A stretch of 64,000 bases of DNA from JBDROU01 sp043809745 [NCBI: bacterium] (GTDB taxonomy: Bacteria > Elusimicrobiota > JBDRMW01): assembly GCA_043809745.1 (NCBI GenBank), contig JBDROU010000073.1, forward strand, positions 106,967 through 170,966, given 5' to 3'. The notes under the pieces were generated by a model. That model did not search any database, was not told where the DNA came from, and saw only the letters and a program-made list of their open reading frames with translations. A program made the translations under genes and the position numbers. This document shows positions 50,600-64,000 of this stretch, one piece after another; the first letter of the stretch is position 1; the number at the start of each line of letters is the position of its first letter.

Positions 50600-52522
50600 A
50601 TGTTTGAAAATAAGCGTTTTTTTATTGTTTTATTAATCTCAGTTATTTCATTTTCGCTTTTATCGGTAAATGCCGAAAGCAGAAAAGATAAAGATGTTGG
50701 CAATAGAAGCAAAGCTAATAGCTCTAATCATGAACTATCCATTAAATATTTTGGAACTGAAAAAATTATTGATTATGAAAAATATGGAAAATTCAAAGGT
50801 ACTGGGACGGATAATTACAAGTATGCGATTGACGATATAATTGGGCTGAAAAGAGCTGCTGGTACAGGCATCTATCCTGACAGTATTAGCGTGTTTAAAG
50901 AGCCGTTATATAAAAAGTTGAAAAAGGAAAAGTCATTATCGGGCGATAAGTGGGATTTTATTCATTCAGATAATTATGCGGCAAATATTTATAAATGGGC
51001 TTCATGTGAGGATGAAGATATTGAAGGAGTTAAGCAGTGGTTTACTGCATTTGCTTTGGAGCGCGCAGGCTTGTTGGATCACGCAATAAAGGCATATTAT
51101 GCTATTATTGTTCATTTCCCAAAAAGTGTGGGTTGGACATTTTTTAATACTCCATGGTACCAGGGAAGAGCTGCTGTTGATAAAGTAGATTTGCTTTGCA
51201 GGCAAAATCCTAAATTGGGCATGAAACTTGTGGATTGCGAAATAAAAATAATAAATGGATATAATAATGAAACAGGAGACGATATATTCTATGTCAGGCC
51301 TGGGAAGCTTATCAAGGTTGATCCTGAACAGGTATTAGACAAAAGGATTAATCTTAGCAGTCTGACTGAAGTAAGAAAGATTGGGAGATCTGATGTGCAG
51401 CTGATTAAGTATAATAATAACCACTGGCAGTTAATACTTAATAACAAACCATTTGTTGTGAAGGCTGTTGCATATTCTCCTAATAAGGTAGGATTATCCC
51501 CTGATTCAAGTACATTAACGCCGCACAAAGATTATATGAAAGATGATTATAACAGTAATGGCAAAATAGATGGCCCATATGATGCTTGGGTTGATAAGAA
51601 CGGAAATAATCTTCAAGACGAAGATGAAACTGCGGTAGGTGATTTCCGGTTAATGAAGGAGATGGGGGTGAATGCAGTTAGATTATACCATCATGTTTAT
51701 AATAAAGAATTATTAATGGATCTTTATAATAATTACGGAATCATGGCGTTGATAGGTGATTATTTAGGTATGTATTCTGTGGGTTCTGATGCCCCGTTTT
51801 CCACCGGGACAGATTATTCTAATGAAGAATATAGAAAGAATATGGTTGAAAGTGTAAAATCAATGGTAGTGGATAATAAAGATGAACCATATGTTTTAAT
51901 GTGGATATTGGGAAATGAGAATAATTATAGTGCTGATCCGGTTACCTATTACAAGTTCGTTAATGAAGTCGCGAAGATAATAAAAAGTATTGATCCTAAT
52001 CATCCTGTGGCAATATGCAACGGTGATTTCTTATTTCTGGATTTATTTGCCAAATATTGCCCGGATATTGATATTTACGGAACCAACAGTTATAGGGGTA
52101 AGGATGGATTTGGTTTAAGCCTATGGAAAGGTGTCAGTGATTTAGCCGATAAAGCCGTACTTATTACAGAGTATGGATGCCCTGCCTATCATTCTGGTAA
52201 AAGTTTTGAAATAGCTGAGGACGAACAGTCAGAATACCATGAGTTTTGCTGGAAGGATATCATGTACAATACAGCAGGGAGTGGCTACGGAAATTCTATA
52301 GGAGGTGTTGTTTTTGAATGGTGTGATGAATGGTGGAAGAATGGAAATTCCTATAATGCTGATAAGCATGATGAAAAAGGAAAGGTCAAAGGGCCATATC
52401 CGGATGGATGGCTTTATGAGGAGTGGTTAGGTATATGCGGTCAAGGTGATGGTAAAAACAGCCCCTTTTTAAGACATCTGAGAAAAGTATATTACACTTA
52501 CCAAAAAATATGGAATGAATGA
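50600..52522 (+). CDS. Secreted glycosidase with (beta/alpha)8 barrel and calcium-binding loops
   Basis: A 640-residue exported protein. Signal peptide near residues 1-26 (ends VNAES). The first 300 residues are an unassigned helical domain. Then come two calcium loop-like stretches, DYNSNGKID near 315 and DKNGNNLQDED near 330. The C-terminal 300 residues match the catalytic barrel of GH2/GH5-like enzymes: MKEMGVNAVRLYHH near 355, the acid/base glutamate in WILGNENNYS near 436, DIYGTNSYRG near 492, the nucleophile in ITEYGCPAYHSG near 520, and GVVFEWCDEWW. AAGGCGG precedes the ATG. The exact family and substrate cannot be told; a beta-glycosidase on glucan or glycosaminoglycan is an inference. 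Confidence 0.8.
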   Translation: MFENKRFFIVLLISVISFSLLSVNAESRKDKDVGNRSKANSSNHELSIKYFGTEKIIDYEKYGKFKGTGTDNYKYAIDDIIGLKRAAGTGIYPDSISVFKEPLYKKLKKEKSLSGDKWDFIHSDNYAANIYKWASCEDEDIEGVKQWFTAFALERAGLLDHAIKAYYAIIVHFPKSVGWTFFNTPWYQGRAAVDKVDLLCRQNPKLGMKLVDCEIKIINGYNNETGDDIFYVRPGKLIKVDPEQVLDKRINLSSLTEVRKIGRSDVQLIKYNNNHWQLILNNKPFVVKAVAYSPNKVGLSPDSSTLTPHKDYMKDDYNSNGKIDGPYDAWVDKNGNNLQDEDETAVGDFRLMKEMGVNAVRLYHHVYNKELLMDLYNNYGIMALIGDYLGMYSVGSDAPFSTGTDYSNEEYRKNMVESVKSMVVDNKDEPYVLMWILGNENNYSADPVTYYKFVNEVAKIIKSIDPNHPVAICNGDFLFLDLFAKYCPDIDIYGTNSYRGKDGFGLSLWKGVSDLADKAVLITEYGCPAYHSGKSFEIAEDEQSEYHEFCWKDIMYNTAGSGYGNSIGGVVFEWCDEWWKNGNSYNADKHDEKGKVKGPYPDGWLYEEWLGICGQGDGKNSPFLRHLRKVYYTYQKIWNE

Positions 52523-52586
52523 ATATGAGAGATCTCAATATTAATTCTCTTTTTTAATCCTTTAATAAATTGAAGTCCATGCTGAT

Positions 52587-52952
52587 ATGCAAATTGCACT
52601 ACTAATAATTGCTTTCATATTAATAATTGAAGGTGTTATGGAAATAATAGTTCCGGCAAAGATGAGAAATGCTTTAGCTCAGATGTATATGGAAATCCCA
52701 CCTAAAGCTTTGGGCATTCTTTACTGTTTTATAGGAGTAAGTTTGAGCTTTGCTTCTCAATCAATTAGAATAAGAATGATTGGGCTATTAATAGGTGTGT
52801 TATTCTTTTTAGCAGGATTTTTGGTTGTAATTCTGCCTGAGGGAGCGGTAGTTAAAGTATTGGAGAAATTTAGCAAAGCCTCAATAATATTCTTTCGGTT
52901 ATGGGGCATTATGGTTGTCGGAATTGGAGTGTTACTTGTTTTTGCCCGTTAA
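52587..52952 (+). CDS. Small inner membrane protein, DUF2065-like
   Basis: A 121-residue protein with four hydrophobic segments over residues 1-120. The first 60 residues resemble the YjeT/DUF2065 fold (ILIIEGVMEIIVPAKMRNAL followed by a Gly-rich helix). A similar repeat unit seems to form the second half (LLIGVLFFLAGFLVVILPEGAV). Function unknown. It is convergent with the next minus-strand gene with a 13-base gap. Confidence 0.6.
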   Translation: MQIALLIIAFILIIEGVMEIIVPAKMRNALAQMYMEIPPKALGILYCFIGVSLSFASQSIRIRMIGLLIGVLFFLAGFLVVILPEGAVVKVLEKFSKASIIFFRLWGIMVVGIGVLLVFAR

Positions 52953-52965
52953 ATCCTTTTTACGT

Positions 52966-53652
52966 TTATCTTTTTGAACGAGTAACTAAATTAAAAAATC
53001 TATCTTCATATGCGCTGAATAATTTAGAGTCTTTTAAGCACCTTCCAAGAATACGTATCTTTCTCGGATCTTTTTCAGCCTGGCGGAATAAATTTTCTAT
53101 TTCAATTTTAATTTTTGTTAATTGTCGTTCCTCGGGCGGATCAAAAAAACCACGCTCTTCAAATTCAGTTATATTGCTACTCGCGGAGCGGAGCATCATT
53201 TCCAACGTCAATTTTAGTATCGACAGTTCATTGCTTGAATCTATCCCGGATAGAATGGCAATGTAGTTATCCTCTGAGGTACGCTCTTTTATTCTTCTTA
53301 ATACATTTGAAAAAGAATCAGATACGATCTTGGTTTGTGTTGGTTCATGCTTGAAATGGTAACCGATAATCCTTATTTCTGTTCTGATATCTTGATAGAT
53401 TTCATCAATAAAATCTTCCACTTCTGAGCCATAGCCTTCAAATGAGTCTTTAATATCTTGAGATAATATGATCTTTGGTTTCTGAAATATTACCCTGCCC
53501 TCTCTCGTTTTTGTTTTCTTTACGTCAAGAGAAGCCAAGAAAAAATAATCTATGGCAGATTGTCCAAAAGTTGACAAAGAGTAACGAGGATAACTTAAAA
53601 TCTTCGTCATACGGAAAATATCTTCAAATTTTTGATTTTTTTTGCTGTACAT
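52966..53652 (-). CDS. Hypothetical cytoplasmic protein
   Basis: A 228-residue soluble protein, no signal peptide or membrane segment, mostly helical and charged. Visible are SYPRYSLSTFGQSAIDYFFL near residue 20, EGRVIFQKPKII near 52, and HFKHEPTQTKIV near 98, a spacing that could hold a small binding site. A helix-rich C-terminus follows. I do not recognise the family. Its own promoter lies upstream on the minus strand. The gene is downstream of and on the same strand as an HD-GYP regulator, so a link to that signal is possible but unsupported. Confidence 0.55.
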   Translation of the reverse strand: MYSKKNQKFEDIFRMTKILSYPRYSLSTFGQSAIDYFFLASLDVKKTKTREGRVIFQKPKIILSQDIKDSFEGYGSEVEDFIDEIYQDIRTEIRIIGYHFKHEPTQTKIVSDSFSNVLRRIKERTSEDNYIAILSGIDSSNELSILKLTLEMMLRSASSNITEFEERGFFDPPEERQLTKIKIEIENLFRQAEKDPRKIRILGRCLKDSKLFSAYEDRFFNLVTRSKR

Positions 53653-53683
53653 GTTTTAGTTAATGTCCTTGAAAGTGGTTAGA

Positions 53684-53712
53684 ATGTTAGCAAAATATTT
53701 TCAACAAATCAA
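53684..53712 (-). promoter_or_regulatory. Putative promoter of the 228-residue hypothetical gene
   Basis: On the minus strand TTGATT lies at 53712-53707 and TAACAT at 53689-53684 with a 17-base spacer. The ATG at 53652 is about 31 bases downstream of the -10 box, and AAGGA lies between them. Confidence 0.45.
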
Positions 53713-53767
53713 GATTTACTTAGAGATTATGTTTAGGCCTTTGTTTGCAGGTATATGGAATTAACAA

Positions 53768-54823
53768 TTATTTGTTGCTTTCTTTAATTTTGGTAATTTC
53801 TGGTATAATATCGAAAAATGCATCTACAAGTTTTGGATCAAAATCTATACCGCTTTTTTTTCTAATTTCATTTATTCCCTCTAACATTGATTTTGCTTTT
53901 TTATAAAGTCGATTTGAAGTGATAGTGTCAAATACATCTGCTATTGCGCATATTCTGCCTTCTAATGGTATTTGCTCTCCTTTTAGCTTCTTAGGGTAGC
54001 CGCTGCCATTCCAGCGTTCATGGTGTGTTAAAGCAACTATCTCTGCCATTTTTAATAATTCTGATTTACTGCCTGAAAGTAAATTAGCTCCAAATTCCGA
54101 ATGTTTTTCCATTAGCAAACGCTGTTTTTCATCTAACTTATCAGGCCTTAATAATATTGTGTCAGGTATTCCCAGTTTCCCGGTATCATGAAGTGCCGCT
54201 GCATCTCTCAGCAGGCTGCAATGTTGTTCATTAAGGCCGATTTTTTGGCCTAATAAATGAGAGATTGCGCTCACCCGCAACGCATGTGAGCCGGTAATAT
54301 TGTCACGATATTCGATTGCAAGACTCAATTTGTGAATAATTTCGCGCTGGGATTCCATAAGTTCTTTTGTCCTCTCCATTACCTTTTGTTCAAGGATTAT
54401 GTTCTGCTCATTAATTCTATTATGAAGCAGCCGCACTTCCAGCATATTTTGTATATGTATTAATGTTTCAGTTGAATCGATGGGTTTAGTTATAAAGCCT
54501 TTTGCTCCCATCTGAAGAGCTTTTATTTTACTTTCTTTATCCTGTTTAGCTGTAAGTATAAGAATAGGACAGTATGAATTCTCTTCAATTTTTTGAATTT
54601 CATTCATAATGTCAAATCCATTAACAATTGGCATTTCAAGATCGAGTATCAACAGATCCGGACAGAAGTTTTTATATGTCTCTATTGCTTTCCTGGAATC
54701 TGTAATTGATTTAATGTTTTTATATCCTTTTGACTCTAATAAGGTTGTTAAAAGAAAAACATTTTCTTCTTGGTCATCTATAAGCAGTATTCTCGCATTA
54801 AGTATTTCTTCAATATCAATCAC
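53768..54823 (-). CDS. Response regulator with HD-GYP phosphodiesterase domain
   Basis: A 351-residue regulator that likely hydrolyses cyclic-di-GMP. The receiver domain (1-130) has ILLIDDQEEN, the phospho-acceptor in LILDLEMPI near 58 and ITKPIDS. After a coiled linker the HD-GYP domain begins near 170: SHALRVSAISHL, the HD pair in LHDTGKLGIPDTILLRP near 215, HSEFGANLLSG, and the GYP loop HHERWNGSGYPKKL near 268. All metal ligands seem present. The start is GTG 54823, preceded by AAGGA. It lies divergent from nikR. Confidence 0.93.
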   Translation of the reverse strand: MIDIEEILNARILLIDDQEENVFLLTTLLESKGYKNIKSITDSRKAIETYKNFCPDLLILDLEMPIVNGFDIMNEIQKIEENSYCPILILTAKQDKESKIKALQMGAKGFITKPIDSTETLIHIQNMLEVRLLHNRINEQNIILEQKVMERTKELMESQREIIHKLSLAIEYRDNITGSHALRVSAISHLLGQKIGLNEQHCSLLRDAAALHDTGKLGIPDTILLRPDKLDEKQRLLMEKHSEFGANLLSGSKSELLKMAEIVALTHHERWNGSGYPKKLKGEQIPLEGRICAIADVFDTITSNRLYKKAKSMLEGINEIRKKSGIDFDPKLVDAFFDIIPEITKIKESNK

Positions 54824-54996
54824 AATATTAGTCCTTTTTTGAGCAAAACGGCTATATATATATATGTATACTGAGAACGGAAATTTTGCAAGACATTATT
54901 AAAATTGTTCGTTTCCAGTTTCCTTTACTTCCCTTGTTTAAATATGCATCTTATTAAAAATATAGCACCGGAAAAGAAGGTCCTATATTTATGAAA

Positions 54997-55025
54997 TTGA
55001 CTTTCACTTATTATTTTGCTACTTT
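54997..55025 (+). promoter_or_regulatory. nikR promoter with overlapping palindrome
   Basis: TTGACT at 54997-55002 and TACTTT at 55020-55025 with a 17-base spacer. ATGAAA (54991-54996) and TTTCAC (55002-55007) form an imperfect inverted repeat across the -35 box (5 of 6 pairs), a possible autorepression site for NikR. The site does not match the E. coli GTATGA-N16-TCATAC operator closely, so this is tentative. Confidence 0.4.
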
Positions 55026-55062
55026 TTTATAAATCGTAACACTAATTAAAAGGTGGTTTATT

Positions 55063-55479
55063 ATGGTAAATGTAGATAGATTTGGTGTTTCCATGGAGAG
55101 AAAGCTTTTAGAGAAATTTGATTCCCTTATTAAGGAAAAGGGATATAGAAATAGATCAGAAGCAATCAGGGATATAATTCGAGATCGTTTAGTTCAGGAA
55201 GAGTGGAAATCCTGCAAGGAAGCAGTTGGTACGGTTACTATAGTGTATGACCATCATTCCAAATCTATTGCGAAAACGCTGAATAAGCTGCAGCATCAGC
55301 ATCATAAGTACATTATCTCAACGACTCATATACATATGGATGCTCACAATTGTTTGGAAGTATTGATACTTAGAGGCAACTCGCATAAGATAAAGAAGAT
55401 CAGCGATATTTTAATCGGGAGGCGCGGAGTAAAGCATGGGAAACTTGTAATGACTACAACAGGCACTGAGCTGCTTTAA
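55063..55479 (+). CDS. nikR: Nickel-responsive regulator NikR
   Basis: A 138-residue metal-dependent repressor. The N-terminal ribbon-helix-helix (residues 1-48) has VDRFGVSMERKLLEKFD and YRNRSEAIRDIIRDRL. The C-terminal ACT-like domain carries the nickel ligands His78, His89, His91 and Cys97, with the same spacing as His76, His87, His89 and Cys95 of E. coli NikR. So nickel binding should be intact. AAAAGGTGG gives a strong ribosome binding site. The TonB receptor gene follows 22 bases later, and an ABC transporter of the Znu type follows that; repression of these genes by nickel-NikR is the natural inference. Confidence 0.95.
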   Translation: MVNVDRFGVSMERKLLEKFDSLIKEKGYRNRSEAIRDIIRDRLVQEEWKSCKEAVGTVTIVYDHHSKSIAKTLNKLQHQHHKYIISTTHIHMDAHNCLEVLILRGNSHKIKKISDILIGRRGVKHGKLVMTTTGTELL

Positions 55480-55501
55480 TTATAGGGGGCTATCATCAAT
55501 T

Positions 55502-57313
55502 ATGAACAATAAATTGGCTATTTTGAGTTTTTGTTTAATTAGCTTGGTTAATCTTATTAGTCCTGGTATGTTGTTTTGCGAGGGAGGAATAGTTGAATTA
55601 GGTAAAATAATAATATCCCCAGCACTTTTTAGCGAACATAAAAGAGAAGTTGCAGGATCGGTAACTATAATTAACAGAGAGGAAATTGAATTGTCATCGG
55701 CGCATGATGTTTTGGAACTGATTGAAACTTATGCAGGGGTTTTTGTCGAACGAACAGGCACATATGGAAGACAGGAAATAAAATTGCGCGGATTTGGGGA
55801 TAATGGCACAAAGTTATTAGTGTTAATAAATGGAAGGCCGGAAAAGATGTCTATTTTCGGCTGTACGGTTACCCAGTCACTTACTCTAGATGATATCGAA
55901 AAAATTGAAATCATTCGCGGTCCAAAGTCGGTGTTGTATGGTTCTGATGCTCTTGGAGGCGTAATAAATATAGTAACAAGGACGCTTGATGAAGGTACGG
56001 GATTTGAATTTCAAGGAAGTTATGGCACTTTTGATACACAAACATTAGTTCTTAAGAATGGTTTTTCAAATGATAAGGTAAAATACTTTGTTACCGCTGG
56101 AAAAAAGAGTACAGACGGGCATAGGGATAATTCCGGGTTCTACAGTGAAGATTATACGGGTAAGTTTGCATACAGGTTTAATGAGTCGGTGGAATGTTCT
56201 CTGGGCGCAAGATATTTTTCTGGTATTGATGAGATGCCGGGGACTGTGAATAATCCTACTCCGGACGATGAAAGGGATTATAAGCGCGGGTCAGTGGATG
56301 CAACTGTTGACGCGCGTTTTAATGAGACCTCATTTTCTTTGATCACATTTGAAAATTTTGGGCATCATGCCTTTTTCGGTACAAATAACTGGCATTCTCG
56401 GGATAAGACGGTAGGCATAAAAGCGCAGATGCACCAGGAATTTTGGAGCAATCATTTGCTAAGCCTAGGGATTGATTTCACACGGTTTGATGGTGAAAGG
56501 CTTAAGCCGCAAAAGGAAGGGAAATGGCATGCATACGAATTAAGCCCTTCGATTTATGATGATATCAATTTTCTTGATGATCATTTGAAATTTACTATAG
56601 GCGGCAGATATCTAAATTATTCAGAAGCTGGTGAGGAGTATGTTTATGATTTAGGCCTTTTGCTGAAATCTGATAATAACGAGTCATTTTGGCTGAATAC
56701 CAGCAAGGGATTACGTACGCCAAAGATTAATGAGCTTTATCTCTTTCCCACCTCAAATCCAGATTTAGAATCTGAAAATGTGAAAAACCATGAAATTGGA
56801 ATGAGTAAGGAATTGATCTCATGGATATTTTTTGATTTTTCAGTTTATAAAATGTATGGATCAAATTTAATACGTTTAGTGCAGGATAAAAGTATTCCTT
56901 CCTCTTTTATTCTCAAAAATTCTCAGGGGTTTGATTTTAGGGGCTTTGAGACAAATATAGTGTTAAAACCTAATAAAATTTATTCGCAGAGAATAACCTA
57001 CACGTATCAAGATGTGGGGAATCTTACTCAAGGCAGGCCGCATCATCAGTTAAATTTAGCTCCGCAGTTTTCTATAAGCAGGCTTACAGTTAATGTTATC
57101 GGTAAATATTTTTCTAAACTGTACGGGGAAGATAATCATAGGGACAGATTGGATGATTCCTTTACAGTCGATAGTAAGCTTGTGTATAAAGCAGCAGAAA
57201 ATACTGCGATTTTTGTTCAGGGCAGGAACATATTTGATAAGGATTATCAGCTCGAAAGCGGCTACCCTCTGCCGGGGGCTGCTTTTGAATGCGGGATACA
57301 AATAAATTTTTAA
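55502..57313 (+). CDS. TonB-dependent outer membrane receptor
   Basis: A 603-residue receptor. A signal peptide ends near residue 26. The plug domain (about 40-165) has VAGSVTIINREEIEL, VLELIETYAGVFVERTG, and RGPKSVLYGSDALGGVINIVT (in two blocks: RGPKSVLYGSDALGG and VINIVT), as in BtuB-like receptors. The C-terminal barrel has the final VQGRNIFDKDY block and ends in an aromatic residue (INF). No classical TonB box was identified near the N-terminus. Being behind nikR and ahead of a metal ABC transporter, it likely moves nickel, cobalt or a metal chelate across the outer membrane. Confidence 0.92.
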   Translation: MNNKLAILSFCLISLVNLISPGMLFCEGGIVELGKIIISPALFSEHKREVAGSVTIINREEIELSSAHDVLELIETYAGVFVERTGTYGRQEIKLRGFGDNGTKLLVLINGRPEKMSIFGCTVTQSLTLDDIEKIEIIRGPKSVLYGSDALGGVINIVTRTLDEGTGFEFQGSYGTFDTQTLVLKNGFSNDKVKYFVTAGKKSTDGHRDNSGFYSEDYTGKFAYRFNESVECSLGARYFSGIDEMPGTVNNPTPDDERDYKRGSVDATVDARFNETSFSLITFENFGHHAFFGTNNWHSRDKTVGIKAQMHQEFWSNHLLSLGIDFTRFDGERLKPQKEGKWHAYELSPSIYDDINFLDDHLKFTIGGRYLNYSEAGEEYVYDLGLLLKSDNNESFWLNTSKGLRTPKINELYLFPTSNPDLESENVKNHEIGMSKELISWIFFDFSVYKMYGSNLIRLVQDKSIPSSFILKNSQGFDFRGFETNIVLKPNKIYSQRITYTYQDVGNLTQGRPHHQLNLAPQFSISRLTVNVIGKYFSKLYGEDNHRDRLDDSFTVDSKLVYKAAENTAIFVQGRNIFDKDYQLESGYPLPGAAFECGIQINF

Positions 57314-57314
57314 A

Positions 57315-58115
57315 ATGAAAAATATTTTGTTGCTACTGTTAATGTTGATTATAAATTCAAACGCCTATTCTCAAGAGAAAGGGGCAGTAGTTGTTACTAC
57401 TTCAATGCTAGAGGTAATTGTCAGAAATATAGTTAAAGATAATATTGATGTGGTATCACTTTGCCCTGGATCGCTTTGTCCGGGTCACAGCGACATATCT
57501 GCCGAAAGAATGGTCAGATTACATAAAGCAAATTTAGTAATAAAGCATGGATGGGAAAAATATCTGGATAATGTTCTAGATAAGTTAGAAGATGCTCCTA
57601 TTGAAGTAAGATCAGTTGATTTTTTGGAAAATGGCATGATACCGGATGCTCATGTTAAGCTGGTCAATAAAGTATTCTCAATCCTATCAAAGCAGTGGCC
57701 TTATTACGAGAAAACTTTTTATACGAATAAAGAAAAATATATTGCTGAAATCCGTAAAAAAGCCGATCTGTTGCGGCCGGATATAGAAAAATTGAAAGGT
57801 CTAAAAGTAGTGTGTTCGGAAAAGTTGGTGTCATTGTTAAAAAATCTAGGGATGGATATTGTTGACCATTATGGAAGACCTGAAAGCTTTACTGTTCGAA
57901 AAATTAGAGATCTAATGTTGAAGATTAGAAAAGAGGATGTGGTGTTAATAGTTAATAATATGCAGAGCGGATCAGATGCGGGAGAGCTTTTTGAACGGGA
58001 GAATCCCAAAATAAAGCAAATTAACATTACAAATTTTCCAATAAAAAACACCAGTGACGCATATTTATCCGCATTTGAGGATAACATCCGATTACTAAAT
58101 GAGGCATTAGAGTGA
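57315..58115 (+). CDS. ZnuA/TroA-like metal-binding periplasmic protein
   Basis: A 266-residue secreted solute-binding protein. A signal peptide spans about 1-19. The family blocks are VVVTTSMLEVIVRNI, MVRLHKANLVIKHGWEKYLD near 72 (in two pieces), and FPIKNTSDAYLSAFEDNI at the end. The usual zinc-site histidines are altered, with a cysteine-containing SLCPGSLCPGHSD near residue 51, HGWE near 76, and PDAHVKL near 100, so the site may prefer a different metal. Together with the following ATPase and permease it forms a cluster A-I (Znu/Mnt type) uptake system. NikR control suggests nickel or cobalt. Confidence 0.82.
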   Translation: MKNILLLLLMLIINSNAYSQEKGAVVVTTSMLEVIVRNIVKDNIDVVSLCPGSLCPGHSDISAERMVRLHKANLVIKHGWEKYLDNVLDKLEDAPIEVRSVDFLENGMIPDAHVKLVNKVFSILSKQWPYYEKTFYTNKEKYIAEIRKKADLLRPDIEKLKGLKVVCSEKLVSLLKNLGMDIVDHYGRPESFTVRKIRDLMLKIRKEDVVLIVNNMQSGSDAGELFERENPKIKQINITNFPIKNTSDAYLSAFEDNIRLLNEALE

Positions 58116-58846
58116 GTAAAACAGCGCTTAAGTGGGATAACGTAACATACTACTACTGTAAGAATAAAAAAGTGGTAAATGGTATTTCTATATCTGTTGA
58201 TTGCGGAGAGTTTGTAGTGCTTTTTGGTCCGAATGGATCTGGCAAAACAACTCTTCTCAAGTTGGCAGTTGGGTTACTTAAAGCTAAAGGCGGAAAAATA
58301 GAATTATTTGGGGATGATATAAAAAAAATTCCTAACAATATTTTGCCACAGCTTGTCTCGTATATTCCGCAGGTCTTAAAAATTGGAAAGGATATGCCGA
58401 TTCTGGTAAAGGATGTCATAGATATAGGCTATTATTCAAAAAATGGATGGCGCAATAAGGATAAGATAAAACGGGATGAAGAAACATACCTTTCTGCCAG
58501 AAAACTTAATATTGAGCATTTGATTAATAAACCAATTGGAGAGATTTCAGGAGGAGAAGCTCGTAAGGTGCAGCTAGCAAGAATATTGTCTCAGAGGGCT
58601 CAGATTATGATACTTGATGAGCCGACAGCTCACCTTGATATTGCTTCTAAAAGAGATTTTTATAATGAATTAAAAGCTTTATTCTCTAAATATATTACAA
58701 CAATTATTCTAGTAGTTCATAGTTTGGAAGATATACCTGAATTTAGTAAAAGAATGATATATTTAGAAAAAGGCAGAGTGACTTTAGATGATATTCGTGA
58801 GGAAGTAATAGTGAAAATTAATTTGAACAGCGGGATAAAATACTAA
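58112..58846 (+). CDS. Metal ABC transporter ATP-binding protein (Znu type)
   Basis: A 244-residue ABC ATPase. Walker A is FGPNGSGKTTLLKLAVG near residue 37, the signature EISGGEARKVQLARIL near 148, Walker B MILDEPTAHLD near 170, and the switch histidine VVHSLEDIPE near 208. The GTG start overlaps the preceding stop by four bases, and its own stop overlaps the permease ATG by one base, so the three genes are coupled. Sequence type matches ZnuC/MntB. Confidence 0.9.
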   Translation: MSKTALKWDNVTYYYCKNKKVVNGISISVDCGEFVVLFGPNGSGKTTLLKLAVGLLKAKGGKIELFGDDIKKIPNNILPQLVSYIPQVLKIGKDMPILVKDVIDIGYYSKNGWRNKDKIKRDEETYLSARKLNIEHLINKPIGEISGGEARKVQLARILSQRAQIMILDEPTAHLDIASKRDFYNELKALFSKYITTIILVVHSLEDIPEFSKRMIYLEKGRVTLDDIREEVIVKINLNSGIKY

Positions 58847-59655
58847 TGATTGAGCTATTAGAGTACAAATTTTTTCAGAATGCGCTTTTTGCAAGTGTTT
58901 TCGGCGGTTGTGCATGTTCGCTGATAGGAGTTTATATCTTTCTGAAGGACATCCCATTTTTAGGTATTGCGTTATCCCATGCGGCTTTTGCCGGTGCTCT
59001 TGGTGCGGTTGTGTTGGGGATAGATCCGTTTGCAGGAGCAATAATATTCTGTGTGCTTTTTAGCTTTATTTTAGGCCCATTCTCTTATTCATTAAAAGGG
59101 AAGACAAATATCGCAATGGGTATTATTTTCTCAGTATTTATTGGGTTAGCTTTTCTATGGTTAGCTATGATCCCGGGACCTAAGACAGAGGGCTTAAATC
59201 TTATTTGGGGGAGTATACTTACTATTTCTAGGAAAGAAGTGATATTTATGATATTTGTGTTTTTTGTAATAGTACTTTGCTTAATCAGATATTTCCCTAT
59301 GATAAGAACAATATTGTATAACAGTGAAATTGCTTCGGTAAGTGGGATTAAAGAAAGAACGATGTATTATGCCATTATCTTTATATGCAGTATGACAGTG
59401 AGTATAAATCTTACGACTATTGGAGGGATATTGATTTTTAGCTTACTTATTAATCCCGCAGCGGCAGCCAATCAACTATCTAATAAGCTGCCTTTGATTT
59501 TTTTATTGGCGGCTGTATTTGGGGTAACTTCTTGTTTAATAGGATTGTTGTTTTCGTTCTGGTTAAATCTGCCTTGTGGGGCATTAATTGTATTAACTTC
59601 CAGCATGTTGTACTTCTTCGCCTACTTAATTTCGCCAAGGAGGCGTAATGGATAA
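58846..59655 (+). CDS. Metal ABC transporter permease (ZnuB type)
   Basis: A 269-residue permease with seven to eight membrane segments. The ABC-3 family pattern is seen in YKFFQNALFASVFGGCACSLIGVY, split here as FFQNALFASVFGG and SLIGVYIFLK, then HAAFAGALGAVVLG near residue 45 and LLINPAAAANQLS near 203. It forms the membrane channel with the ATPase upstream. The last eight bases overlap the methyltransferase gene. Confidence 0.9.
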   Translation: MIELLEYKFFQNALFASVFGGCACSLIGVYIFLKDIPFLGIALSHAAFAGALGAVVLGIDPFAGAIIFCVLFSFILGPFSYSLKGKTNIAMGIIFSVFIGLAFLWLAMIPGPKTEGLNLIWGSILTISRKEVIFMIFVFFVIVLCLIRYFPMIRTILYNSEIASVSGIKERTMYYAIIFICSMTVSINLTTIGGILIFSLLINPAAAANQLSNKLPLIFLLAAVFGVTSCLIGLLFSFWLNLPCGALIVLTSSMLYFFAYLISPRRRNG

Positions 59656-60253
59656 GAAGTGTTTCTTTAATTCACAGGCAAATATTTGGGACAAAACCTA
59701 TTGGTATAATGAAGAAAAGCTTAATAGGGTAAAATCGCTTATCAAAAGATTCAAGTTAAAGCCTGGTATGACGGTGCTGGATTTAGCTACAGGAACCGGG
59801 GTGCTTCTGCCTTTGATTCAAAATGATATAGGGCATGACGGGAAGTTGTTTGCATTGGATTATTCATATGAGATGCTTAAAGCTGGGAAAAATAAAGGAT
59901 TACAAGGTCAGATTCATTTCCTGCTTGCAGATGTAAATAAAATACCAATAAAGAAATGCTTATTTGATCGAATCATCTGTTTTTCTGCCTTCCCGCATTT
60001 TCATAACAAAATATCAATAATTAGAAACTGTTTAAGCATACAGAAGCCGGGAGGGTTATTTTTTATAGCTCATATTACAAATAGTGAAAAACTTAATAAA
60101 ATGCACAAAATATCACACAGTACTGTTAAAAATGATTACATGCCATCCAAAAAGCAATTTGCAGTTTTGTTGAGAAAAGCAGGGATAATAAAATTTAATA
60201 TTGTGGAAAATAAAGATATTTATTGTATTGAAATACCGAAAAGTGTTTATTAA
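59648..60253 (+). CDS. Class I SAM-dependent methyltransferase in the metal operon
   Basis: A 201-residue methyltransferase. The SAM site is TVLDLATGTGVLLPLI near residue 40, followed by LFALDYSYEMLKAGK near 72, LLADVNKIPIKKCLFD near 95 and ICFSAFPHFHNK. No substrate is evident; the UbiE/small-molecule type is the nearest. It starts within the permease gene with an AGGAGG ribosome binding site, so it is part of the nikR-znu-like operon. A role in making or modifying a metal chelator is a tempting inference without direct support. Confidence 0.85.
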   Translation: MDKKCFFNSQANIWDKTYWYNEEKLNRVKSLIKRFKLKPGMTVLDLATGTGVLLPLIQNDIGHDGKLFALDYSYEMLKAGKNKGLQGQIHFLLADVNKIPIKKCLFDRIICFSAFPHFHNKISIIRNCLSIQKPGGLFFIAHITNSEKLNKMHKISHSTVKNDYMPSKKQFAVLLRKAGIIKFNIVENKDIYCIEIPKSVY

Positions 60254-60280
60254 ATTAGCTGGTGCAGACTATCTAGATTA

Positions 60281-60309
60281 TTGAAATATTTTTAAAAAAG
60301 ATTTACAAT
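60281..60309 (+). promoter_or_regulatory. Promoter of the His-rich membrane protein gene
   Basis: TTGAAA at 60281-60286 and TACAAT at 60304-60309 with a 17-base spacer. The following gene starts with TTG at 60339 and has GTGGGG upstream. This separates it from the nikR operon although the metal theme may be shared. Confidence 0.55.
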
Positions 60310-60338
60310 ACGGTATGTATATTTAGTGGGGTTCAGCT

Positions 60339-61571
60339 TTGCAATTATATAAGACGATTATATTTTCACTTTTTTTTGTTTTATTCAGATGCTGCTCTTG
60401 TTTTTCGTGCGGCTTTCCGGTTTATCCAGTGGAAGTAAAAATTACAATTACTGATAAAAACATAACGGCTGATATAAAAAACAATGCGGTTTATTGGAGT
60501 AAAGTTGTCATTGGTGAGGAAATTGCAAAAGTTGGGAAGGGATCAGATAAACTTCACCTGAGAATTCAAAGTTATATAAACGCGCACCTTTCAATATGGC
60601 TGGATAACCAGCAGTTAAAAGGGAATTTGAAAAGATATAGTTTTGAAGAAAACCCCTGGGTATCTTCAGAAAAAGCAGAGGTGCACTTTTTTCTTACATA
60701 TGATTTGCCAAAAAAAAAGAGTAAATTAATTAAGATTAAAAGTGTATTTTTCATAAATTATTATGAACCGAAAATATCAAATAATAGTGATAAAGGTGAC
60801 AATGCTAAAAGCAATGAGCATATTGAACAAGCAGACCATGATCACTCCTCGCATGATTATTTAATTTCGCATGAGTTTTTAACAAAATTGGTTATTAAGA
60901 GCGGAAAATGCATAAAAAAGGATCTGCCAATAGAAGATCCCGAGGTCGTATTGACTTTTGCTGATTATCAACAAACATTCTTTCAGAGTATAGCGGAATA
61001 TTTTATTAAGGGAATATTGATTTTAATCATTTTTGTTCCGTTCAGTTTCCTGCTGTTAGGATGGATGCTGATGTCTTATAATAAGAATTTGATTATTAAA
61101 GAGGGGATATTTGTATATTCCGGAGTAGTTACAGGTATATTAATTATGAATTGCATTTCATCTTTGCAGTTACCAGGTTATGTTTTAAATATGATTGGAT
61201 GGGCTGTGGTTGTACTGTTTTGTGTTTACAATTATTTTTTGCTTAGCAGGAAAATGATTAAATTGTTTTTATTAGCGGCAGGTTTTGTTATGGGCATGAT
61301 TTCTTTAAGTACAATATTTAATTCTTTTGCTATTCATTCGCTAGATTTAATCCGATTACTGGCTTTTTGCGCAGGGATATTAATATCTATTGCAATATTC
61401 TGTATTCTTACAAATAATATAGTTAGAATTTACAAAATAAAGTTAAGCAGATATTCAGAAAGCAAAGCTGAGGAAATATTTATTGGGCGCATGAAATTCG
61501 CAACATTTACCATAATAATTGTGGCGGGGTTATTTATAGCCCAGATTGTAAAATCAAATTTGGTTAATTAG
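60339..61571 (+). CDS. Secreted/membrane protein with His-rich linker, unknown function
   Basis: A 410-residue protein. An N-terminal signal (YKTIIFSLFFVLFRCCSCFS) leads to a beta-rich extracytoplasmic domain up to about 145, then a metal-binding-looking linker with NEHIEQADHDHSSHDY near 168, a further beta block, and about six membrane helices from 218 to 405. The domain plan recalls HupE/NicO-type metal proteins but I see no diagnostic motif. The start is a TTG with a fair ribosome binding site; no better start exists. It follows the nikR operon with its own promoter. Nickel or cobalt handling is inferred only from His content and neighbours. Confidence 0.6.
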   Translation: MQLYKTIIFSLFFVLFRCCSCFSCGFPVYPVEVKITITDKNITADIKNNAVYWSKVVIGEEIAKVGKGSDKLHLRIQSYINAHLSIWLDNQQLKGNLKRYSFEENPWVSSEKAEVHFFLTYDLPKKKSKLIKIKSVFFINYYEPKISNNSDKGDNAKSNEHIEQADHDHSSHDYLISHEFLTKLVIKSGKCIKKDLPIEDPEVVLTFADYQQTFFQSIAEYFIKGILILIIFVPFSFLLLGWMLMSYNKNLIIKEGIFVYSGVVTGILIMNCISSLQLPGYVLNMIGWAVVVLFCVYNYFLLSRKMIKLFLLAAGFVMGMISLSTIFNSFAIHSLDLIRLLAFCAGILISIAIFCILTNNIVRIYKIKLSRYSESKAEEIFIGRMKFATFTIIIVAGLFIAQIVKSNLVN

Positions 61572-61576
61572 GAGAA

Positions 61577-62353
61577 ATGAGATCTATGGAAGTTATAAGG
61601 CTTGATAAAGTTACAAAGCTTTACAGAAAGAGTCACCTGGGAAAAGTCACCGAAACAGTGGGAGTTGAAGGGTTGGATCTTACGATAAGCAAAGGCGAAG
61701 TGTTTGGGTTGTTAGGTCTGAACGGGTCAGGCAAGACTACAACCATAAAGCTGATGCTCGGTCTTCTTTATCCGACCAAAGGTCATGTAAAAATTATGGA
61801 TAAAGATATGCCTGATAAAGAGACATTAAAACATATCGGGTATCTTCCGGAAGCTGCCTATCTCAACAAGTATTTGACTGCCAGAGAAACATTAGAATTT
61901 TTTGCCAGTATTTCTGATATTGATAAGCATAAAAGAATGGATATTATTGCTTCCATTTTGGAGCAGGTTGGCATGAAGAATTTTGCGAATAAAAGGTTGG
62001 CAGAATTTTCTAAAGGCATGCTGCAGAGGATAAGCATTGCGCAGTCTCTTTTGCATAATCCCGAAATACTGGTATTTGACGAACCAATTACAGGATTGGA
62101 TCCATTGGCATTAAAAGAGATAAGGCAGTTGATTTTATATTTAAAATCACAAAGAAAAACAGTTTTCTTCTCTTCTCATAATATTTCCGAAGTTGAACGT
62201 GTATGCGACAGAATAGGTATAGTTGTAAGTGGAAAGTTAGTTTCGGTTACACCGCAAAATGAGTGGATAAATAAGGAAGGAAGATTGGAAGAGATATTTG
62301 TTTCTACAGTAAAGGATTCAAGCAATGTAGGAGCGCTAACCTTTATTAAATAA
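61577..62353 (+). CDS. ABC-2 type transporter ATP-binding protein
   Basis: A 258-residue ABC ATPase of the drug/export or Na+-efflux type. Walker A is LLGLNGSGKTTTIKLMLGLL near residue 43, the Q-loop region HIGYLPEAAYLNKYLT near 93, the signature EFSKGMLQRISIAQSL near 143, Walker B LVFDEPITGLDPLALK near 164, and the H-loop SSHNISEVERVCDR near 195. ATG 61577 or ATG 61586 may be used; AGGAG is closer than normal for the first and slightly far for the second. The next gene is the matching permease. Confidence 0.92.
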   Translation: MRSMEVIRLDKVTKLYRKSHLGKVTETVGVEGLDLTISKGEVFGLLGLNGSGKTTTIKLMLGLLYPTKGHVKIMDKDMPDKETLKHIGYLPEAAYLNKYLTARETLEFFASISDIDKHKRMDIIASILEQVGMKNFANKRLAEFSKGMLQRISIAQSLLHNPEILVFDEPITGLDPLALKEIRQLILYLKSQRKTVFFSSHNISEVERVCDRIGIVVSGKLVSVTPQNEWINKEGRLEEIFVSTVKDSSNVGALTFIK

Positions 62354-62376
62354 TTTATTTTGTTTTGGAGGGAATT

Positions 62377-63144
62377 GTGGATACGATCAAAGCCGTAATG
62401 CTATATACAGTAAAACAACATATAAGAACAAAAGTTTATCTGATAGTCGTGTTATTCGGTTTGATTCTAGTACTGGGAGCGATGGTAGTTTCTTCACTTG
62501 CGGTTGAATACAGAATACGCATGATGCTTAATATGGGTTTGGGAGGGATTGAGTTCCTAGCGCTTATTGCTGTGATATTTGCTACCGTTAATATGGTGTT
62601 GGAGGAGATGGATTCAAGGAGCATATACTTGATACTTACTCATCCAATAAAAAAAGCGCATTATCTTTTAGGCAGATATTTTGGAACTCTAATCGCAGTT
62701 GGTTTAGCCATGTTAATCATGTCATTCTTACATCTTTTAAGTTTATTTATTGTCGGATGGGGGTGGGAGAACGCTTATCTGATATCTATTGTATTATCAT
62801 TTATCAAAATTATGGTGATGAGCAGTATCGCTTTATTGTTTTCGCTATTTTCAACTTCCGCGCCCACTTCAATGGTTTTTACAATTTTTTTGTGGTTGAT
62901 GGGCCACTTTTCTGAAGAACTGAAATTTATGGGGGAAAAGGCTACTAATATATTCATAAAAATAGTAATTTGGGTCTTGTATAATATTACGCCTAATCTT
63001 TCATACTTCAACTATCGTGATTTTTGGAGCGCAGCTAATGCCCCGGGTATTATGTGGTTCGTATGGATGGTTTTGTACAGTTTTTTTTATATTACTATCT
63101 GCACCACAATATCAAATTTCTTATTTTCTCAGAAAGAATTCTAA
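62377..63144 (+). CDS. ABC-2 type transporter permease
   Basis: A 255-residue membrane protein with six helices. The blocks VLEEMDSRSIYLILTHPIKK near residue 73 and RYFGTLIAVGLAMLIM belong to the ABC-2 membrane family 2. The GTG at 62377 is used because GGAGGG lies just upstream; the TTG at 62365 overlaps this site. It pairs with the ATPase before it. Substrate is unknown. Confidence 0.88.
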   Translation: MDTIKAVMLYTVKQHIRTKVYLIVVLFGLILVLGAMVVSSLAVEYRIRMMLNMGLGGIEFLALIAVIFATVNMVLEEMDSRSIYLILTHPIKKAHYLLGRYFGTLIAVGLAMLIMSFLHLLSLFIVGWGWENAYLISIVLSFIKIMVMSSIALLFSLFSTSAPTSMVFTIFLWLMGHFSEELKFMGEKATNIFIKIVIWVLYNITPNLSYFNYRDFWSAANAPGIMWFVWMVLYSFFYITICTTISNFLFSQKEF

Positions 63145-63867
63145 ATGACAACTAATACTGCTAATAGGATGTTTTCGAAGAAATATTTTATAATTAAGCT
63201 TGTAGTATTGTTGTTTTTGATGGTGTTCTCTTTACGGCAAATCAGAAGGGCTTATGACTTGCCATTTCCAAGTTTTGACAAACTGGTAATAGAGAATACG
63301 GAACTGCAGGATATAGGCGGAATAATTTTTGGATTCAGGGGAACTACGGCGGATATAGCTTGGATTGAATTACTTCAATACATCGGAGGGGGTTTGTTTC
63401 TTGATGAAGATAGCAGCAAAAGTTATGAAAAGATTCAATATTTTGCTAAGCGGATTATAAAAATAGATCCTTTTTACAGGCCGGCGATATTATATGCTGC
63501 AAGCATACTTGCATGGTTTAAAAACGTTAATAGACCCGAGGAAGCACTCGAGCTGCTCAGAGAAGGTATAAAAAAAGATCCTTCCTACTGGCCTTATCAT
63601 TTATATATTGCTGCGATAACCTACAAAAATATATCTTCTGATTCGGAGCAAGCTTTAAGCATACTTGAATCCGCTGTTCGCAGGGATGATTGTCCGATAA
63701 TTGTTAAAAATATTTTGTCGAACATATATAAAGAAATGAAGCGTTATGATGATGCTATGCGTATATGGTTGGGTGTTCTGAATAGTAACGAAGTGTATTA
63801 TTATGATGATGCCAGGAGGGAGATAGAGATTTTGAGGGGTTTGAAATACAGCGCAAATAACTATTGA
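63145..63867 (+). CDS. Membrane-anchored TPR protein
   Basis: A 240-residue protein with an N-terminal membrane segment (YFIIKLVVLLFLMVFSL), then a conserved-looking block GGIIFGFRGTTADIAWIELLQ near residue 52 (as GFRGTTADIAW), and TPR-like helices from 95 to 235 (RPAILYAASILAWF, YWPYHLYIAAIT). Similar proteins often follow ABC-2 exporter pairs in candidate phyla. The ATG directly follows the permease stop. A scaffold role for the exporter is inferred. Confidence 0.72.
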   Translation: MTTNTANRMFSKKYFIIKLVVLLFLMVFSLRQIRRAYDLPFPSFDKLVIENTELQDIGGIIFGFRGTTADIAWIELLQYIGGGLFLDEDSSKSYEKIQYFAKRIIKIDPFYRPAILYAASILAWFKNVNRPEEALELLREGIKKDPSYWPYHLYIAAITYKNISSDSEQALSILESAVRRDDCPIIVKNILSNIYKEMKRYDDAMRIWLGVLNSNEVYYYDDARREIEILRGLKYSANNY

Positions 63868-63893
63868 CAACTGCATAAGTAATGTCCTATAAT
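63864..63893 (+). promoter_or_regulatory. Promoter of the IS630-like transposase
   Basis: Consensus TTGACA at 63864-63869 and consensus TATAAT at 63888-63893 with an 18-base spacer. GGAGGTG at 63901-63907 precedes the ATG at 63915. Confidence 0.65.
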
Positions 63894-63914
63894 ATAAGCC
63901 GGAGGTGGAATCCT

Positions 63915-64000
63915 ATGAGACCGCACGGTAACCAAATGCAGTTGGAGCAAAGACGTTTCACCGCACTTAGCATGCTCAAAGAAGGACTTCTTCCCGGAGA
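63915..64000 (+). CDS. IS630-family transposase, N-terminus only (cut by window edge)
   Basis: The first 28 codons read MRPHGNQMQLEQRRFTALSM and then a LKEGLLPG turn, the typical start of IS630-like transposases, whose N-terminal helix-turn-helix binds the element ends. The stretch is visibly richer in G and C than the genes before it, which fits recent arrival. The rest lies outside the window, so whether the gene is whole is not known. A strong promoter and ribosome binding site precede it. Confidence 0.7.
   Translation, partial: MRPHGNQMQLEQRRFTALSMLKEGLLPG

What the first reader, a model, noticed from the sequence alone, without database searches (positions are those of the whole stretch)
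55063..61571. NikR-headed locus joining a TonB receptor, Znu-type ABC transporter, methyltransferase and His-rich membrane protein
nikR is intact in all four nickel ligands (His78, His89, His91, Cys97), yet the transporter beside it is of the ZnuABC/TroA cluster rather than NikABCDE or NikMNQO. The binding protein has an altered metal site with two cysteines (SLCPGSLCPGHSD). A methyltransferase is translationally coupled to the permease, and the following gene has a HDHSSH linker. This looks like a dedicated nickel or cobalt acquisition system that has borrowed a zinc-type transporter. The methyltransferase may act on a metal chelator; this last part is speculation.
Basis: partly seen in the sequence, partly recalled or inferred. 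Interest (0 to 1): 0.6.

Follow-up and report, generated by a model that had tools for sequence, protein, structure and literature searches.

The report
Nickel uptake operon with built-in methyltransferase
A run of six bacterial genes headed by a nickel sensor looks like a nickel-import system that reuses a zinc-type pump with a changed binding site and carries a small methylating enzyme that turns up repeatedly beside metal importers in other bacteria, so it may be a missing step in how microbes handle captured nickel.

Summary
Window 55063-60253 is one tight operon: nikR, TonB receptor, TroA/ZnuA-like binding protein, ATPase, ABC-3 permease, SAM methyltransferase (MT). A NikR-type operator (12 of 14 consensus bases) lies 20 bp before nikR. 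The gene set recurs: 14 of 345 genomes of the Oryzomonas phylum carry a CPGH-motif binding protein, 13 of those 14 also carry the MT, and nikR lies near in 5 of the 11 fetched loci holding both. CPGH proteins, the window's included, form one branch (99/92) apart from ordinary ZnuA; the third His ligand is gone in 19 of 19, the second in 17 of 19. The MT is the most constant part. It also sits beside ECF S components, Opp-type and FecCD-type importers; nikR is within the flanks of 29 of 75 MT loci and hyp, lar or hydrogenase genes in 12 of 75. Against a nickel-only MT: 0 of 40 further loci from the Oryzomonas phylum have nikR. Three MT His are nearly invariant (109, 110 and 116 of 116). The His-rich membrane gene is probably not part. 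Best reading: NikR-controlled import of nickel as an organic chelate, the MT acting on the ligand (inferred). My paper searches found no description of it. Both structure predictions failed.

The parts
55016..55042 (+). NikR operator candidate TTGCTAC-N13-GTAACAC
   Evidence: 12 of 14 bases of the delta-proteobacterial consensus GTGTTAC-N13/14-GTAACAC (PMC545781 Table 4); the only site in the 64-kb window with 2 mismatches or fewer; with up to 3 mismatches 3 sites found, 0.94 expected, so the place, 20 bp before nikR, carries the weight
55063..55479 (+). nikR, nickel-responsive regulator, His78 His89 His91 Cys97 present
55502..57313 (+). TonB-dependent outer-membrane receptor (603 aa)
   Evidence: Plug 6.7e-25; among 19 related loci its nearest relatives are the receptors of the TonB + ECF S + MT cassette, E 9e-55 to 2e-68
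57315..58115 (+). TroA/ZnuA-like binding protein of the CPGH branch (266 aa)
   Evidence: PF01297 8.1e-18; tree; ligand columns
57477..57488 (+). CPGH motif, residues C55-P56-G57-H58
58112..58846 (+). ABC transporter ATPase, start overlaps the binding-protein stop
58846..59655 (+). ABC-3 permease
   Evidence: PF00950 2.9e-50; 37-49% identical to permeases of the CPGH loci
59648..60253 (+). class I SAM methyltransferase with conserved FPH117, H142, H153, D163; overlaps the permease stop by 8 bases
60339..61571 (+). 410-aa membrane protein with HDHSSH linker; probably NOT part of the system
   Evidence: 85 bp after the MT, 5 bp before an ABC-2-type ATPase gene; no Pfam match below E 0.06; no match in 343 loci

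Best explanation
A nickel-repressed operon for uptake of nickel as an organic chelate. Nickel-loaded NikR sits on the operator before nikR and shuts the operon; when nickel is short the TonB receptor brings the nickel complex through the outer membrane, the CPGH-type binding protein takes it in the periplasm by a site different from ordinary ZnuA (Cys55 and His58 in place of the usual three-His set), and the ABC-3 permease with its ATPase imports it. The coupled SAM methyltransferase acts in the cytoplasm on the organic ligand, either to release the metal or as the last step in making the ligand; its three nearly invariant His would hold the metal or the metal-ligand complex. Shown: gene order, families, operator-like site, recurrence, loss of ZnuA ligands, conserved MT residues. 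Inferred from those: nickel specificity (about 0.85) and that the MT is an integral part (about 0.85). Inferred, weaker: that the cargo is a chelate and the MT acts on its ligand (about 0.4). The confidence below is for nickel uptake with the MT as an integral part.
For: Tight operon. Operator-like site 20 bp before nikR; sites with 3 mismatches or fewer before 32 of 61 nikR or TonB genes of related loci and the window, against 9 of 385 other genes; with 2 or fewer 18 of 61 against 4 of 385. CPGH binding protein in 14 of 345 genomes, 13 of 14 with the MT, expected 2.1. nikR-TonB-SBP-ATPase-permease-MT in the same order in L157, L159, L166. nikR within the flanks of 29 of 75 MT loci, Ni-enzyme or Ni-maturation genes in 12 of 75, an inner- or outer-membrane importer in 70 of 75. 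LarB, LarC, LarE, HypA, HypC, HypD and a [NiFe] hydrogenase large subunit confirmed by profile at examples. CPGH branch 99/92, window inside. MT H142 116 of 116, H117 110, H153 109. The MT also stands beside FecCD- and Peripla_BP_2-type importers, a kind known to carry chelates (recalled).
Against: 0 of 40 further MT loci of the Oryzomonas phylum, 38 from other genomes, have nikR or any of the seven Ni-gene profiles within the fetched flanks, so the MT family as a whole is not nickel-only. Only 1 of 80 nikR loci has an MT of the family, and 1 of 28 MT loci of the Caldanaerobacter phylum has nikR. No MT in 245 Nitrospirota genomes. G560 and G067 have the CPGH protein without an MT found. No metal, ligand or activity was measured. 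No chelator-making genes other than the MT recur beside it. Both structure predictions were too poor to use. The window's own phylum could not be reached, so recurrence in its lineage is unknown.
Confidence: 0.72

Rival explanations
1. Free nickel ions are imported by the CPGH protein, and the methyltransferase modifies a protein of the system or some unrelated metabolite that must be adjusted when nickel is short.
For: No other chelator biosynthesis genes recur. The MT accompanies chemically different importers, which a shared protein target could also explain.
Against: The importers have no common protein on which it would act, and several (TonB, FecCD) are of kinds that carry organic complexes (recalled). 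The MT's best solved relatives are small-molecule methyltransferases.
Confidence: 0.15
2. A cobalt or corrinoid (or mixed nickel-cobalt) uptake system under NikR.
For: The TonB receptor's best NCBIfam profile is the B12 receptor (9.4e-41, far below its cut-off). L167 has a gene that I read by eye as CobN-like next to the cluster.
Against: NikR heads the operon with its ligands; neighbours are nickel genes (LarBCE, Hyp, [NiFe] hydrogenase); no cobalamin riboswitch in window 52000-64000.
Confidence: 0.1
3. An ordinary zinc (or manganese) ZnuABC importer that happens to lie behind nikR.
For: ABC-3 permease and PF01297. ZnuABC-type genes with ordinary binding proteins also stand beside nikR in Geobacter-type genomes.
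Against: CPGH branch apart from ordinary ZnuA, ligand His lost; the set recurs with nikR and the MT; operator-like site.
Confidence: 0.05

Closest known systems
ZnuABC / TroABCD / MntABC importers (PF01297 + PF00950 + ABC ATPase)
   Same: All three subunits and their order; binding-protein fold family
   Different: CPGH in place of the first-His loop, third His replaced by Ser or Ala in 19 of 19 and second His lost in 17 of 19; NikR instead of Zur or MntR; TonB receptor and MT in the operon
NikR-controlled TonB nickel receptors (FrpB4/FecA3, NikH of Helicobacter; from passages of PMC11247825)
   Same: NikR beside or over a TonB receptor for nickel
   Different: Here one operon holds nikR, receptor, ABC-3 importer and MT; no test of homology to FrpB4 or NikH was made
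Caldithrix abyssi nikR-TonB-nikMNQO loci (PMC5317091, passages)
   Same: nikR, TonB receptors and NikR-like sites in shared loci
   Different: Reported importer is NikMNQO; the word methyltransferase does not occur in that paper
NikABCDE and NikMNQO nickel importers
   Same: NikR control (PMC2667541, PMC545781, passages)
   Different: No SBP_bac_5, BPD or CbiM-type subunit among the window genes tested
Staphylopine/pseudopaline opine metallophore systems (recalled; PMC7438024 seen only as a listing)
   Same: Metal taken up as an organic complex, SAM-using enzyme in the cluster
   Different: The window's enzyme is a UbiE/BioC-like methyltransferase; no nicotianamine-synthase-like or opine-dehydrogenase gene among the ten genes scanned

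Membership tests
NikR | Ribbon-helix-helix plus NikR_C domain | tested here: met
   RHH_1 35 bits (cut-off 20.5), NikR_C 103.7 bits (cut-off 22); PRK04460 207 bits (cut-off 105)
NikR | Three His and one Cys nickel ligands | tested here: met
   H78, H89, H91, C97, aligned to 2bj1; ligand identity recalled
NikR | Own operator in the operon promoter | tested here: met
   12 of 14 bases at 55016-55042, sequence level only; binding not testable here
ZnuABC zinc importer | PF01297 binding protein, ABC-3 permease, ABC ATPase | tested here: met
ZnuABC zinc importer | Ordinary metal site with three His | tested here: not met
   Second and third His absent in the window protein, first replaced by CPGH; 42 ordinary rows keep them in 39, 42 and 41 of 42
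ZnuABC zinc importer | Zur control | not tested
   No Zur site search was made; nikR heads the operon
NikABCDE | SBP_bac_5 binding protein and two BPD permeases | tested here: not met
   Absent from the ten genes scanned
NikMNQO | CbiM/NikM S component with ECF T and A parts | tested here: not met
   Absent from the ten genes scanned
CPGH binding-protein branch defined here | Falls in one branch with the motif, apart from ordinary ZnuA | tested here: met
   99/92, one change against a shuffled mean of 16.7; the label is the motif itself, and the window's end branch is long (2.12)
MT family defined here | FPH...H...NxxH residues and a profile score above 100 bits | tested here: met
   The window MT is a seed of the profile A2; 116-row counts
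Opine metallophore system (Cnt/Zrl type) | Nicotianamine-synthase-like and opine-dehydrogenase genes | tested here: not met
   None among the ten genes scanned
Any nickel importer | Transport of nickel | not testable with these tools
   Needs bench work

The most novel reading that the evidence does not exclude
A class of metal-chelate uptake systems unified not by the importer but by a small SAM methyltransferase with a conserved His triad: in its nickel form NikR controls a TonB receptor, an interchangeable inner-membrane importer (CPGH-type ABC-3, an unnamed ECF S component, or Opp type) and the methyltransferase, which processes a so far unknown organic nickel ligand. The CPGH proteins and the ~175-aa S components would then be new nickel-complex binding families.
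Probability: 0.4. Interest if true: 0.82.

Novelty: new variant of a known kind. Interest (0 to 1): 0.62.

Why it matters
Nickel limits hydrogenases, CO dehydrogenases and lactate racemase-type enzymes in anaerobes, yet how nickel is captured outside the few model systems is poorly known, and bacterial nickel chelators are largely hypothetical. A methyltransferase that keeps its place while the importer changes points to a shared small molecule and gives a direct handle on it: the enzyme can be expressed and its substrate fished for. The CPGH proteins are annotated by family as zinc-uptake components (PF01297), so many may be misnamed in genomes.

Tried and rejected
Genome of the window: none is held. 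The binding protein alone found nothing in genome contigs or plasmids (E up to 0.01). GatB of the window was compared with 26 genomes to place its phylum; 24 matched, best identity 56%, so the phylum stays unknown.

A PDB search with the binding protein gave only weak matches (best E 0.033). AlphaFold runs without an alignment for the MT and the binding protein gave mean pLDDT 35.0 and 45.2 and were not used further; no fold search was made. My plan to see whether the three MT His lie together therefore failed.

Considered and dropped: that any ZnuABC beside nikR is the same system. In Geobacter-type genomes and one Nitrospirae contig ABC-3 genes lie next to nikR (L006, L007, L010, L011, L014, L016, L062, L076 upstream, L075 downstream, 9 of 80 nikR loci), but the binding proteins of those put in the tree (L006, L007, L010, L011, L014, L075) fall outside the CPGH branch.

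Considered and limited: that the MT is a nickel enzyme in every case. 0 of 40 further loci in the Oryzomonas phylum have nikR; there TonB (26 of 40) and FecCD-type genes (a cluster in 9 loci, one member confirmed) are the neighbours. The MT tree is a quick one with long-branch warnings; importer labels switch several times on it, but it does not place the window MT.

Promoter and terminator scans found no more than chance (22 promoter-like sites against 29.5 expected; 5 terminator-like against 3.4). Rfam: nothing at gathering scores in 52000-64000. Eight paper searches gave no description of the nikR + TonB + ABC-3 or ECF S + MT set; passages were seen of PMC545781, PMC2667541, PMC11247825 and PMC5317091, listings only of the others; PMC1317602 is not held.

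A note in my notebook says that the three His are lost in 19 of 19; the recount gives third His 19 of 19, second 17 of 19, first replaced by the CPGH motif.
Full report
What is in the sequence. Six genes on the + strand run almost without gaps from 55063 to 60253: nikR, a TonB-dependent receptor, a TroA/ZnuA-like binding protein (SBP), an ABC ATPase, an ABC-3 permease and a class I SAM methyltransferase (MT). The MT start overlaps the permease stop by 8 bases and the ATPase start overlaps the SBP stop. NikR keeps H78, H89, H91 and C97. The next gene, the 410-aa protein with HDHSSH, is 85 bp away from the MT but 5 bp from an ABC-2-type ATPase gene, has no Pfam match below E 0.06 and no match in 343 loci; I leave it out of the system.

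Regulation. The published NikR consensus of delta-proteobacteria, GTGTTAC-N13/14-GTAACAC (PMC545781, passages and Table 4), matches 12 of 14 bases at 55016-55042, 20 bp before nikR. It is the only site in the window with 2 mismatches or fewer. With up to 3 mismatches the window has 3 sites where shuffles give 0.94, so one site alone proves little. Across related loci, 350 bp upstream to 50 bp inside the gene, 32 of 61 nikR or TonB genes (the window's nikR included) have a site with 3 mismatches or fewer against 9 of 385 other genes of the same loci; with 2 or fewer, 18 of 61 against 4 of 385. Two TonB rows were dropped as too short. nikR and TonB of one locus count as two rows, and controls are not matched for base composition.

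Recurrence. The window SBP alone found one relative with the same CPGHxD motif, in G067. The profile of the two (A1) found 14 of 345 genomes of the phylum of the Oryzomonas genome with full-length matches, E 1.6e-22 or better; the next best, E 1.2e-9, lies outside the CPGH branch. In the Margulisbacteria-type phylum no match passed E 1e-8 (74 genomes). Around the 14 the same set returns: nikR-TonB-SBP-ATPase-permease-MT in this order in L157, L159 and L166; nikR nearby in L160 and L168; TonB-MT-SBP-ATPase-permease in L158, L163 and L164, with [NiFe] hydrogenase genes 6-7 kb from the MT. Some contigs end inside the cluster (L156, L161, L165). Of the 14 genomes 13 hold an MT of the family, 51 of 345 genomes do overall, expected overlap 2.1, hypergeometric 4.8e-11 (relatedness of genomes is not corrected for).

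The binding protein. A tree of 65 SBP rows puts the 19 rows with CPGH on one branch (99/92; one change against a shuffled mean of 16.7), the window among them next to G626 and G627; four further rows (L145, L152, L232, L254) join below it with 100/100, and 42 ordinary rows stand apart. The label is the motif itself and the window's end branch is long (2.12), so its exact place is unsure. In the 42 ordinary rows the three His columns are kept in 39, 42 and 41. In the 19 CPGH rows the first reads G with the CPGH His one column on, the second is His in 2 of 19, and the third is Ser or Ala in 19 of 19. The CPGH rows share instead N240-F241-P242, N215 and Q217 in 19 of 19, E190 in 18 of 19 and R188 in 17 of 19.

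The methyltransferase. The profile A2 (13 MTs) was run against four phyla: 39 of 82 genomes of the phylum of G006 (37 at E 3.1e-39 or better), 36 of 199 of the Caldanaerobacter phylum at E 1e-20 (28 places at 1.8e-30 or better), 51 of 345 of the Oryzomonas phylum at E 1e-28, 0 of 245 of the Nitrospirota-type phylum. I fetched flanks, about 6 kb where the contig allowed, of 36 of the 37, of all 28, and used the 11 of 14 CPGH loci that hold the MT. Of these 75 loci 70 have an importer gene (69 an inner-membrane one), 29 have nikR (23 of 36, 1 of 28, 5 of 11), and 12 have hyp, lar or [NiFe] hydrogenase genes. Unbiased clustering of neighbour genes gives the same leading families. In the phylum of G006 the usual cassette is nikR-TonB-ECF S component-MT; the S component (about 175 aa) is PF12822 and reaches no NCBIfam cut-off. 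LarB, LarC and LarE (L116), HypA, HypD, HypC and a [NiFe] hydrogenase large subunit were confirmed by profile.

Results against a nickel-only MT. In 40 further MT loci of the Oryzomonas phylum (38 from genomes without the CPGH protein) none of the nikR, hyp, hydrogenase or lar profiles matched; 26 have TonB, 4 an ABC-3 permease, 1 the S component, and a FecCD-type permease cluster occurs in 9 (one member confirmed). Of the 80 nikR loci fetched with the window's nikR, 1 (L012) has an MT of the family. So the MT goes with metal-complex importers in general, and with nickel in the ABC-3/CPGH and ECF S versions. A quick MT tree shows importer labels switching several times, with long-branch warnings.

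MT residues. In 116 MTs, window included, H142 is kept in 116, H117 (FPH) in 110, H153 in 109, P116 in 113 and D163 in 99. Its best solved relatives are phosphoethanolamine N-methyltransferases (2.7e-25), i.e. small-molecule enzymes; in the printed alignment the place of H142 is an Asp there. I take the His set as a hint of metal or metal-complex binding; that they lie together in space is not shown, because the structure prediction failed (pLDDT 35.0).

Mechanism. Shown: operon, operator-like site, recurrence, altered SBP site, conserved MT. Follows from established knowledge: NikR represses when nickel is plentiful, TonB receptors import large or complexed cargo, ABC-3 systems import metals. 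Inferred: the cargo is nickel, probably as a complex, and the MT works on the organic ligand. That several importer kinds share the MT, and that FecCD types carry complexes (recalled), is why I prefer the ligand over a protein target.

Literature. Known: NikR over NikABCDE and NikMNQO, TonB nickel receptors (PMC11247825, passages), nikR-TonB-nikMNQO loci in Caldithrix abyssi with no mention of a methyltransferase (PMC5317091, passages). Eight searches found no account of the present set; the library lacks most subscription journals, and the 2006 transporter survey (PMC1317602) is not held.

Verdict. A real nickel-type uptake operon of a recurrent but, in what I could search, undescribed make-up: a new variant of a known kind, with one component, the MT, whose role is open and testable.

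Noticed in passing
L168 5912-6535; L210 2111-2722; L309 8989-9699: FmdE-family genes (PF02663) recur near the MT, once beside nikR and in a cluster of 6 of 40 further loci. Their role in these metal loci is unknown.
   Followed up: partly
L156 4357-5079, L216 1796-2524, L220 1761-2489: A DUF364 gene (putative heavy-metal chelation) in the loci of three CPGH-type clusters (the family was tested for L156 only).
   Followed up: partly
L238 6654-7172, L227 5436-6011 and 45 further loci with the S profile: Unnamed ECF S component of about 175 aa (PF12822) directly before or overlapping the MT, often with nikR: a candidate nickel or nickel-complex S component.
   Followed up: partly
L006, L007, L010, L011, L014, L016, L062, L076, L075: ABC-3 (ZnuABC-type) genes directly beside nikR in Geobacter-type genomes and one Nitrospirae contig; the six binding proteins placed in the tree are ordinary, not CPGH. 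Whether these carry zinc or nickel is open.
   Followed up: partly
window 60339-63867: Probable separate operon: 410-aa membrane protein with HDHSSH, ABC-2-type ATPase, membrane protein, TPR protein.
   Followed up: no
L167 7821-14550: Genes read by eye as two Mg-chelatase-type ATPases and a CobN-like protein beside a CPGH cluster; not tested by profile.
   Followed up: no
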